Shown here: in pieces, positions 33,048-34,538 of the stretch
Numbering within the stretch: position 1 is the first letter of the stretch
Layout of the letters: each line of letters begins with the position of its first letter
DNA from: Pseudarthrobacter sp. W1I19
GTDB taxonomy: Bacteria; Actinomycetota; Actinomycetes; Actinomycetales; Micrococcaceae
Assembly: GCF_030817835.1 (NCBI RefSeq)
Contig: NZ_JAUSZR010000001.1
Location: 2,728,001-2,792,000 of the forward strand
Length of the DNA: 64,000 nt
Direction of reading: 5' to 3'
Translations under genes and position numbers: made by a program
The notes under the pieces: generated by a model
What the model was told of the DNA's origin: nothing
Databases searched by the model: none
The model's input: only the letters and a program-made list of their open reading frames with translations

Positions 33048-34538
33048 CTACCCTGCGTACTCCCGCACGCCGTCGAGCTCGGCTTCCAGCGCGGCCAGCT
33101 GGCGTTCGACGGCGGCCGGTGCCGTTCCGCCCTGGGAGTTGCGGCTGTTCAGCGAACCCTCCGTGGACAGGACAGTGCGGACCTCCGGCGTGAGATGCTC
33201 CGAGATGGCGGCATACTCCTCGTCGGTCAAGTCCCACAGCTCTACGCCGCGGGATTCCGCCTGCTTGACGGCCGCGCCGGAGAGTTCGTGCGCCTCGCGG
33301 AACGGGACGCCCTGGCGGACCAGCCACTCGGCGATGTCGGTGGCAAGGGCAAAACCCTGCGGTGCCAGCGATTCCATCCGTTCAGTGTTGAACGTCAGGG
33401 TGGCGATCATGCCGGACACGGCCGGGAGCAGGAGCTCGAGGGTGTCGGCGGCGTCGAACACCGGCTCCTTGTCCTCCTGCAGGTCGCGGTTGTACGCCAG
33501 CGGCAGGCCCTTGAGCGTGGCCAGCAGCCCGGTCAGGTTGCCGATCAGGCGCCCCGCCTTGCCGCGGGCCAGCTCCGCCACGTCCGGGTTCTTCTTCTGC
33601 GGCATGATGGACGATCCCGTGGAGTAGGAATCGTGCAGCGTCACAAACGAGAACTCCTTGGTGGCCCAGAGGATGACTTCCTCCGAGATCCGGGACAAGT
33701 CCACACCGATCATGGAGCACACCCAGGCGAACTCGGCGAAGACGTCGCGGGAAGCGGTGCCGTCGATAGAGTTGTGGGCCGCGGAGAAGAAGCCCAGGTC
33801 CGCCGCAACCGCCTCGGGATCAAGCCCCAGGGAGGAGCCTGCCAGGGCGCCTGACCCATAGGGCGAGACGCCGGCGCGCTTGTCCCAGTCCTGGAGGCGC
33901 TGCACGTCGCGCAGCAGCGCCCAGGCGTGGGCCAGCAAATGGTGGCTGAGCAGGACCGGCTGGGCGTGCTGCAGGTGGGTGCGGCCCGGCATGGCCACGC
34001 CGTGGTGGGCCTTGGCCTGCTCCACCAGCGCGTCCACCGTGGCCAGGACACCGCGGGCGATAATCCGGGCATGGTCGCGCAGGAACATCCGGCCCAGCGT
34101 GGCCACCTGGTCGTTCCGCGACCGGCCGGCACGGAGCTTGCCGCCCAGCTGGGTCCCGGCACGCTCGATCAGGCCGCGCTCCAGCGAGCCGTGCACGTCC
34201 TCGTCGGACTCCGCCGGCACATAGGCGCCCGAAGCCACGTCCTCGTCCAGCCGGGTGAGGGCTGCGAGCATGCCCTCCAGCTCGGCGTCGTCCAGCAGGC
34301 CGGCCTTGTGCAGCACCCGGGCGTGGGCCTTGGATCCGGCGATGTCGTACCGCGCGAGCCGCCAGTCAAAGTGCGTGGATTTGCTCAGCGCCGCCAGGGC
34401 GTCGGCGGGGCCGCCGGCGAACCGGCCGCCCCACAGCGCGCCGGTGTTCGTGGAGCCGGTGGTTGAGCTTGTCGAAACCCGGGTTTCGACAAGCTCAACC
34501 ACCGGGTTATCCCCGGGCGTCGAATTCTGCTCAACCAC
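33048..34538 (-). CDS. argH: Argininosuccinate lyase with repeat-derived N-terminus
   Basis: Last enzyme of arginine synthesis (496 residues from the GTG at 34538), splitting argininosuccinate into arginine and fumarate. Core begins GALWGGRFAGGPADALAAL; the signature GSSIMPQKKNPDVAELARGK is intact, as are RAGRSRNDQV and TGSSIM. No ATG, GTG or TTG lies between the core and the palindromic element at 34456-34505, so at least most of the element is translated: VVELVETRVSTSSTTG. The GTG I prefer (GGGAAAG about 8 nt upstream, 5 nt after the argG stop) lies in a degenerate half-copy. The extra N-terminus is about 30 residues longer than in M. tuberculosis ArgH. Confidence 0.94.
   Translation of the reverse strand: MVEQNSTPGDNPVVELVETRVSTSSTTGSTNTGALWGGRFAGGPADALAALSKSTHFDWRLARYDIAGSKAHARVLHKAGLLDDAELEGMLAALTRLDEDVASGAYVPAESDEDVHGSLERGLIERAGTQLGGKLRAGRSRNDQVATLGRMFLRDHARIIARGVLATVDALVEQAKAHHGVAMPGRTHLQHAQPVLLSHHLLAHAWALLRDVQRLQDWDKRAGVSPYGSGALAGSSLGLDPEAVAADLGFFSAAHNSIDGTASRDVFAEFAWVCSMIGVDLSRISEEVILWATKEFSFVTLHDSYSTGSSIMPQKKNPDVAELARGKAGRLIGNLTGLLATLKGLPLAYNRDLQEDKEPVFDAADTLELLLPAVSGMIATLTFNTERMESLAPQGFALATDIAEWLVRQGVPFREAHELSGAAVKQAESRGVELWDLTDEEYAAISEHLTPEVRTVLSTEGSLNSRNSQGGTAPAAVERQLAALEAELDGVREYAG
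34456..34505. repeat. Perfect 50-bp palindrome inside argH
   Basis: Two 25-bp arms (34456-34480 and 34481-34505) are exact reverse complements with no loop; the arm core is GGTTGAGCTTGTCGAAACCC. A degenerate half-copy (TCGAATTCTGCTCAACCACA, 34520-34539) follows and includes the argH start codon. Same family as 32993 and 38542. Confidence 0.95.

What the first reader, a model, noticed from the sequence alone, without database searches (positions are those of the whole stretch)
34456..34538. Perfect 50-bp palindrome translated in frame as the N-terminus of ArgH
Seen: two 25-bp arms without a loop lie between the argH start and the conserved GALWGGRF core. No ATG, GTG or TTG occurs between element and core, so the element must be read. 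The preferred GTG start itself falls in a degenerate half-copy. A palindromic repeat therefore appears to have replaced the native start region of an essential biosynthetic gene, adding about 30 residues. Comparable in-frame palindromic elements (RPE) are described in Rickettsia; I know of no description in Micrococcaceae.
Basis: partly seen in the sequence, partly recalled or inferred. Interest (0 to 1): 0.85.

Follow-up and report, generated by a model that had tools for sequence, protein, structure and literature searches.

The report
Palindromic repeat translated inside housekeeping enzymes
A short palindromic DNA repeat scattered through a soil actinobacterium's chromosome sits in reading frame at the start of the arginine-making enzyme ArgH and in tails and linkers of other core enzymes, so a dispersed repeat appears to keep adding floppy segments to essential proteins.

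Summary
In detail: 34456-34505 is a perfect 25+25 palindrome in frame in argH (33048-34538, minus). It is two inverted copies of a 24-bp dispersed unit, CCGGTGGTTGAGCYTGTCGAAACC, whose core has 144 sites in this 4.8-Mb genome.

Relatives show a hot spot: of 147 parsed argG/argH junctions in the genus, 51 carry a repeat, 21 of this family (4 as full palindrome, scattered on the tree) and 30 of a second family, each in one fixed phase. The nearest relatives lack it. In 11 genomes the unit holds the only canonical argH start.

Eighteen predicted genes of the genome carry units in frame, all read as VVE(P/L)VET or VST(G/S)STT, 16 outside Pfam domains. A REP transposase is absent here and from 149 of 150 genus genomes.

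Verdict: a real in-frame REP-like element, like Rickettsia palindromic elements and intragenic REPs in kind. New are the host group, the phase lock, the missing transposase and the two-family hot spot. Probably a neutral disordered tail; expression untested.

The parts
34456..34505 (.). Perfect 50-bp palindrome: unit (34456-34479, +), 2-bp spacer CG, inverted unit (34482-34505, -)
   Evidence: arms; 24-bp unit borders from 128 sites; start-to-start spacing 21 is the commonest facing pair, 7 pairs
33048..34538 (-). argH, argininosuccinate lyase, 496 aa; N-terminus 27 aa longer than M. tuberculosis ArgH
   Evidence: 6iem; Lyase_1 44-333, ASL_C2 396-464
34536..34538 (-). GTG, most likely start codon of argH
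   Evidence: outside the palindrome stem but paired in a short local helix in the predicted fold; SD-like CGGGAA, -4.3 kcal/mol, spacing 10
34500..34502 (-). in-frame GTG inside the palindrome, alternative start
   Evidence: in the hairpin stem; SD-like CGGGGA, -5.7 kcal/mol, spacing 7
34529..34541 (-). 13-nt 92% match to the unit overlapping the argH start
   Evidence: pair I3; compare GTGGCTGAGC in element-free relatives
34544..35749 (-). argG, argininosuccinate synthase; 5 nt lie between its stop codon and the argH start codon
   Evidence: gene name from neighbourhood and sequence, by knowledge
32993..33039 (.). second pair of unit cores (back to back), 8 nt beyond the end of argH
37333..38610 (-). 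argD-like aminotransferase with units in its N-terminus (MKNIQQTPVVEPVETPVTELVETTGHAG)
   Evidence: (Aminotran_3, 48-417)
38566..38589 (-). perfect unit, in frame in argD (VVEPVET)
38542..38565 (-). degenerate unit (4 of 24 mismatches, counted by eye), in frame in argD (VTELVET); a similar degenerate unit stands alone in relative G126

Best explanation
The palindrome is a head-to-head pair of a 24-bp REP-like dispersed repeat. Shown: it lies in the argH reading frame after the start codon, no canonical start lies between it and the conserved core, relatives carry or lack repeats here with the phase kept, and 17 other predicted genes of the genome carry the same unit in one fixed phase. Inferred: the element spreads or is exchanged as DNA (mobiliser unknown, not a recognisable Y1/RAYT transposase in this genome). 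Insertions inside genes survive only where the reading frame stays open in the mild VVE(P/L)VET / VST(G/S)STT phase and where the protein tolerates a disordered stretch: N- and C-terminal tails, interdomain linkers, a few loops. In ArgH the result is a disordered tail of about 30 residues in front of an otherwise normal enzyme, most likely neutral for catalysis. Spread of junction variants among species by homologous recombination is likely in addition.
For: Palindrome and copy number. Phase at argH (n = 147 parsed junctions): left half-units 19 of 19, right half-units 6 of 6 and family B 30 of 30 each keep one phase relative to the ArgH core. Forced translation: in L112, L113 and L116 the argG stop is in the argH frame (gap 102), and the only canonical starts between it and the core are 32 and 20 codons before the core. 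In 11 genomes of gap 48 or 51 the unit's GTG is the only canonical start. Absence in nearest relatives G126 and G123 (ArgH 99% identical). Genome-wide: 18 predicted genes, 34 copies, every copy at the same codon phase (0.4^18 = 7e-8 if the five open frames were equally likely; my arithmetic; two pairs of paralogues are among the 18). Twelve of the 18 carry a copy at the C-terminus, in a linker or in a loop, where a wrong start call cannot be the cause. Same-strand spacings inside genes 13 of 13 multiples of 3 (5 genes), against 6 of 16 between genes. Copies outside the Pfam domains in 16 of 18. E2 linkers of 19 parsed genomes: units at 2 mismatches or fewer in 5, all in frame; single 5-mismatch matches in 3; none in 11. 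Six other genomes: 8 of 9 gene-level observations in the same phase. AlphaFold: residues 1-33 pLDDT under 50, mean 84.9.
Against: No expression data. SD-like pairing is better for the internal GTG (-5.7) than for GTG 34538 (-4.3), and GTG 34538 is itself paired in a short helix in the predicted fold. The genes come from a home-made codon-usage finder, not from an annotation; two of the 18 (PaaB, enoyl-CoA hydratase) have a predicted start inside a unit and may be start artefacts. One of 9 gene-level observations in other genomes has another phase, at a predicted start. Copies that overlap a gene end were not counted for phase; three own genes end on the TGA of a unit. Single units fold poorly (-3.4 kcal/mol, z -0.39), unlike classical REPs. 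No mobiliser was found and target duplication was not tested, so movement as such is not shown.
Confidence: 0.85

Rival explanations
1. The element is kept for regulation: its 23-bp RNA hairpin between argG and argH tunes argH translation or mRNA stability, and the peptide is a by-product.
For: Hairpin -43.6 kcal/mol. A pair of units also lies just after argH. Of 79 sites outside predicted genes 49 are between tandem genes, 29 between convergent genes and 1 between divergent genes, the pattern reported for transcribed REPs (PMC3733652, section 15 read). One copy of repeat B also folds strongly (-41.5 kcal/mol).
Against: 96 of 147 junctions in the genus carry no recognisable element, 15 carry only a left half-unit and 2 only a right half-unit, without the 23-bp hairpin. 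In-gene arrays of same-strand units (E2, Lhr) have no such palindrome yet keep frame.
Confidence: 0.2
2. Translation starts at the GTG inside the palindrome (34502); the first unit is then only partly coding and the upstream GTG is untranslated leader.
For: Better SD-like pairing, CGGGGA spacing 7. In 11 other genomes the unit's own GTG is the only canonical start.
Against: That GTG is in the stem of the 23-bp hairpin. The codons between the two GTGs are alike in the four carriers (VVEQNSTPG, VVEQNSTPG, VAEQNSNPG, VVEHNSIPG). Most of the palindrome would be translated all the same.
Confidence: 0.15
3. The repeat does not move; ancient junction variants are exchanged between species by homologous recombination and units are homogenised by gene conversion.
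For: Junction classes need 41 changes on the 147-row tree, not far under the shuffled mean of 47.5, though 0 of 200 shuffles were as low; the half-unit class alone is as scattered as shuffled labels (210 of 500 as low).
Against: Copy number differs from 0 to 157 between species of one genus, and the unit is at high copy in one genome of another family (41 sites in G263), which exchange at fixed sites does not explain.
Confidence: 0.3
4. VEPVET is an ordinary protein-level repeat of acidic linkers; the DNA palindrome is incidental.
For: All counted in-gene copies share one phase; linkers rich in P, E, V and T are common (knowledge).
Against: 79 of 128 surveyed own-genome sites lie outside predicted genes. 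The reverse strand of the same unit is read as VST(G/S)STT in six genes. The DNA unit has sharp 24-bp borders.
Confidence: 0.04

Closest known systems
Rickettsia palindromic elements (RPE)
   Same: Palindromic repeats in frame in unrelated genes, several families, thought compatible with protein structure (passages of PMC10969869 seen, which cite Ogata 2000 and 2002; those two papers not seen)
   Different: RPEs are described there as about 150 bp, in obligate intracellular Alphaproteobacteria (RPE-4 and RPE-6 are counted as CGTC REPs in PMC3733652); here a 24-bp unit or 50-bp pair in a high-GC actinobacterium, in one dominant codon phase. Sequence kinship not tested.
Intragenic GTAG/CGTC-tagged REP sequences
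   Same: 20-40 bp units, singles, dimers and clusters, between tandem and convergent genes, some inside genes encoding 20-30 aa or more, some giving stop codons (PMC3733652: section 15 and passages seen)
   Different: No GTAG or CGTC tag; single unit folds weakly; no RAYT in this genome. The words Arthrobacter, actinobacteria and Micrococc- do not occur in that paper's main text.
REPINs / BIMEs mobilised by RAYT
   Same: Two inverted units with a short spacer as a common arrangement
   Different: PF01797 absent from the own genome and from 149 of 150 genus genomes
Coding palindromes in nematomorph mitochondrial genes (PMC6649704)
   Same: Perfect inverted repeats within coding sequence
   Different: Animal mitochondria, up to 284 bp; seen only as the start of the abstract in a search listing

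Membership tests
RPE-like in-frame palindromic element | palindromic repeat dispersed in the genome | tested here: met
RPE-like in-frame palindromic element | lies in frame within genes of known, unrelated function, with element-free orthologues | tested here: met
   in-frame copies; element-free orthologues shown for ArgH and E2 only
RPE-like in-frame palindromic element | the peptide is made in vivo | not testable with these tools
   needs proteomics or ribosome profiling
RPE (the Rickettsia families themselves) | sequence similarity to the RPE families | not tested
   no RPE sequence was fetched
GTAG/CGTC REP | high copy, short, between tandem and convergent genes | tested here: met
   49 tandem, 29 convergent, 1 divergent of 79 sites outside predicted genes
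GTAG/CGTC REP | GTAG or CGTC tag at one end of a stem-loop | tested here: not met
   unit CCGGTGGTTGAGCYTGTCGAAACC has neither
GTAG/CGTC REP | stable stem-loop of the single unit | tested here: not met
   -3.4 kcal/mol, z -0.39 for one 22-nt form of the unit
REPIN / RAYT system | RAYT (Y1_Tnp, PF01797) in the genome | tested here: not met
   none in own genome; 1 of 150; the search found it in 5 of 14 control genomes
MITE | 70-300 bp with terminal inverted repeats | tested here: not met
   unit 24 bp, pair 50 bp
MITE | target-site duplication | not tested
   no clean pair of empty and filled sites was analysed

The most novel reading that the evidence does not exclude
In this actinobacterial genus at least two unrelated families of dispersed repeats, without a recognisable REP transposase in nearly all genomes searched, act as a recurrent source of protein tails, linkers and even start codons for core metabolic enzymes. 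They are locked to a coding-benign phase, so that the repeats have evolved as coding-compatible modules, and the argG-argH junction is a hot spot where such modules are gained, lost and swapped between species.
Probability: 0.45. Interest if true: 0.8.

Novelty: new variant of a known kind. Interest (0 to 1): 0.62.

Why it matters
In-frame palindromic elements are best known from Rickettsia and from scattered REP-rich genomes. Here the same thing appears in an actinobacterial genus, in many core genes at once, with dozens of element-free and element-carrying relatives. That makes it possible to test whether selfish repeats supply disordered tails, linkers and start codons, how a frame preference arises, and what moves a REP-like repeat when no RAYT is present.

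Tried and rejected
RAYT as mobiliser: PF01797 absent from the own genome and from 149 of 150 genus genomes, so rejected as a general explanation. Known RNA family: no Rfam match for 32800-38800 at E up to 0.1. Literature: a text search for four 14-nt forms of the motif found 0 papers. In topic searches none of the listed papers (8 to 20 per search; most searches matched many more) is, by its title, about these repeats in Arthrobacter or relatives; this rests on those listings only, and most subscription papers are not held. Named relatives by the search for related loci were all of other genera; they served for the alignment and model, not for the junction. Chance palindrome and protein-level-repeat readings: rejected for the reasons given above. 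Strand bias of the units by chromosome half: looked at, no clear pattern. M20 peptidase as a clean empty-site case: its loop is variable in homologues and may hold another repeat, so it is weaker than hoped (5 of 15 loci parsed).

Rows dropped: G131 and G053 gave only partial ArgH and were not fetched, and G030 (L256) had no parsable ArgH core, so 147 of 150 junctions were parsed. For two of the 147 (L155, L162) the argG stop was not found by the pattern, so their gap was taken as a fixed length. In the own-genome survey only places in the listed part were targeted (100 listed of 144 sites); other sites count only if they fell inside the fetched stretches. ArgD: 30 loci fetched, 12 parsed. E2: 19 of 20 parsed. 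Proteins: 120 listed of 5381.

Full report
WHAT WAS CHECKED. The inverted repeat 34456-34480 / 34481-34505 is perfect, 25 nt per arm, without a loop. It lies in frame in argH, 33048-34538 on the minus strand, GTG start at 34538, 496 aa. There is, however, an in-frame GTG inside the palindrome, at 34502-34500.

THE UNIT. The window is bases 2728001-2792000 of a single-contig genome of 4,812,144 bases. The core motif GGTTGAGCNTGTCGAAACC has 144 sites there at up to 2 mismatches (90 forward, 54 reverse; reversed control 0). Aligning 128 surveyed sites (up to 3 mismatches, in the window and fetched stretches) gives a unit of 24 bp with sharp borders, CCGGTGGTTGAGCYTGTCGAAACC. The argH palindrome is two units face to face with a 2-bp spacer, the commonest facing arrangement (7 pairs at start-to-start spacing 21). 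The 50 nt fold at -43.6 kcal/mol (z -11.3); a single 22-nt form of the unit folds only at -3.4 (z -0.39).

DISTRIBUTION. In 150 genomes of the genus, 78 hold at least one site at up to 1 mismatch, with 0 to 157 sites per genome. In 297 genomes drawn from the order, 10 hold the 24-bp unit at up to 2 mismatches: 4 of 8 of the genus (own genome included), 0 of 16 of other genera of the family, and 6 of 273 of other families, of which G263 has 41 sites and the other five 1 each. A Y1 transposase (PF01797), the expected partner of REPs, is absent from the own genome and present in 1 of 150 genus genomes, G032.

THE ARGG/ARGH JUNCTION IN RELATIVES. ArgH was found in 150 of 150 genus genomes; 148 junctions were held and 147 parsed. 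Of the 147, 96 carry no recognisable element, 15 a left half-unit, 4 the full palindrome (own genome, G005, G093, G004), 2 a right half-unit, and 30 a second, unrelated repeat B, read as peptides like GPRAQGSPAERSEAGVRSGTN. Thresholds: up to 4 mismatches in 22 for a half-unit, up to 6 in 25 for B. Each kind of copy keeps one phase relative to the ArgH core: 19 of 19 left halves, 6 of 6 right halves, 30 of 30 B. One 61-nt copy of B folds as a hairpin of -41.5 kcal/mol (z -4.3). The B pattern is found in 62 of 150 genomes at up to 2 mismatches, argH copies included, few copies each, some in tandem; the own genome has 2 weak copies.

MUST IT BE TRANSLATED? In three of the four full-palindrome genomes the gap is 102 nt, so the argG stop is in the argH frame, and the only canonical starts lie 32 and 20 codons before the core; both put most or all of the palindrome into the protein. 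In 11 half-unit genomes (gaps 48 and 51) the argG stop is again in frame and the unit's own GTG is the only canonical start before the core. For B, 17 of 30 have no canonical start after the tested 25-nt stretch; 13 have a GTG in or shortly after the tail of B. Start calls in databases agree: among the 120 listed of 5381 ArgH proteins found with own residues 1-60, a query that favours such tails, 3 begin with VEPVET-type and 8 with B-type peptides, one of the latter named Arthrobacter globiformis. For the own genome I prefer GTG 34538. The internal GTG lies in the 23-bp stem, and the codons between the two GTGs encode similar residues in the four carriers. Against this, the SD-like match is better for the internal GTG (-5.7 against -4.3), and GTG 34538 is itself paired in a short local helix in the predicted fold.

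GAIN, LOSS OR EXCHANGE. On a tree of about 600 nt of flanking argG and argH sequence the four full-palindrome rows need 4 changes and starred branches force 4; B needs 23 (at least 14 forced); all classes together 41, against a shuffled mean of 47.5 with 0 of 200 shuffles as low; the left-half class is no more clustered than shuffled labels (14 changes, 210 of 500 as low). The nearest relatives of the own genome, G126 and G123, with ArgH 99% identical, have a short start without element. The tree rests on sequence next to the junction and may itself be affected by recombination; its bootstrap had not settled. Repeated insertion and exchange of junction variants cannot be separated here.

WAS THE NATIVE START REPLACED? 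Own DNA keeps TAGCCCCTGTGGTTGAGCA before the element, one base from the TAGCCCCTGTGGCTGAGCA of many element-free relatives. Seen from these, the pair lies behind a retained start. Seen from G126 and G123 the whole junction differs.

NOT ONLY ARGH. A home-made codon-usage gene finder was run on the window and 74 fetched stretches. Of 128 sites, 49 overlap a predicted gene or short ORF, 49 lie between tandem genes, 29 between convergent and 1 between divergent genes. Eighteen predicted genes of at least 100 aa contain 34 copies, every one at the same codon phase, read forward as VVE(P/L)VET or reverse as VST(G/S)STT (some degenerate); the frames LSLSK, FRQAQ and GFDRLN, also open, are not seen among them. 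Copies overlapping a gene end are not in this count. Six of the 18 carry copies only at the N-terminus, and in two of these (PaaB, enoyl-CoA hydratase) the predicted start lies in the unit, so the start may be wrong; the other 12 carry copies at the C-terminus, in linkers or in a loop. Same-strand spacings inside genes are multiples of 3 in 13 of 13 (5 genes), between genes in 6 of 16. Carriers by Pfam: ArgH, the argD-like aminotransferase, two E2 acyltransferases (copies between lipoyl and E3-binding domains), PAPS reductase, a permease, an M20 peptidase, a PTS protein (between IIA and IIB), a DUF4194 protein, PaaB, an enoyl-CoA hydratase, an amidase, an aconitase-family protein, two glycine dehydrogenases, an HpcH/HpaI aldolase, a nucleoside hydrolase and an Lhr-type helicase. 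In 16 of 18 the copies lie outside the listed Pfam stretches; the M20 copy lies between domain stretches of the peptidase and the helicase copies lie at a split WH2_Lhr match and inside a weak AlkZ-like match. Three genes (in L014, L017, L280) end on the TGA of a unit.

ORTHOLOGUES. E2 linkers of 19 parsed genomes: units at 2 mismatches or fewer in 5 (6 in the own genome), single 5-mismatch matches in 3, none in 11. ArgD: the own protein has a perfect and a degenerate unit, relative G126 only a degenerate one; 12 of 30 fetched loci were parsed. In 20 stretches of six other genomes, 14 of 99 sites are in 7 predicted genes of at least 100 aa; 8 of 9 gene-level observations have the same phase, the exception sitting at a predicted start. 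A protein with the PaaB-like WGLWEVFVRSSRG sequence carries units in the own genome, G128 and G038 in different number and orientation.

WHAT IT DOES TO THE PROTEIN. M. tuberculosis ArgH (6iem) aligns from its residue 2 with own residue 29. The AlphaFold model from 27 sequences has mean pLDDT 84.9, and residues 1-33 lie under 50. The tail is therefore most likely disordered and dispensable for the fold; that it is neutral is inferred.

COMPARISON WITH WHAT IS KNOWN. RPEs in Rickettsia and intragenic REPs in several other species are established (PMC10969869, passages; PMC3733652, passages and section 15). The latter warns that N-terminal cases may be start misannotations; the in-frame argG stops above answer that for part of the genomes here. 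This repeat works like those but lacks the GTAG/CGTC tag, a stable single-unit hairpin and a RAYT, so I do not file it as a GTAG/CGTC REP or REPIN.

Noticed in passing
window 32993-33039: A second, back-to-back pair of units lies 8 nt beyond the end of argH, so argH has unit pairs at both ends.
   Followed up: partly
window 38542-38589: The argD-like gene of the same cluster has a perfect and a degenerate unit in frame in its N-terminus; a degenerate one is also in relative G126.
   Followed up: yes
junction loci L111-L258: A second dispersed repeat (B, peptide like GPRAQGSPAERSE..RSGTN) lies in frame in ArgH of 30 of 147 genomes of the genus.
   Followed up: partly
L305 and L308, M20 peptidase loop: The variable loop also holds a direct-repeat-like stretch (CTCTCACT..CCCAAAACCC) that looks like a third repeat read in frame; its copy number was not searched.
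   Followed up: no
L014, L017, L280: Three predicted genes end on the TGA inside a unit (GGTTGA), so the repeat supplies their stop codon.
   Followed up: no
G128:C1:1637664-1637878: Seven listed units at 28-bp steps (one step double), not a multiple of 3; the stretch was fetched as L391 and no unit there fell in a predicted gene of at least 100 aa.
   Followed up: partly
L022, L396, L402: PaaB or PaaB-like proteins of three species have N-terminal extensions built from units in different number and orientation.
   Followed up: partly
G032: Only genome of 150 in the genus with a Y1 transposase match (2 places, L259 and L260); its link to the unit was not examined.
   Followed up: no
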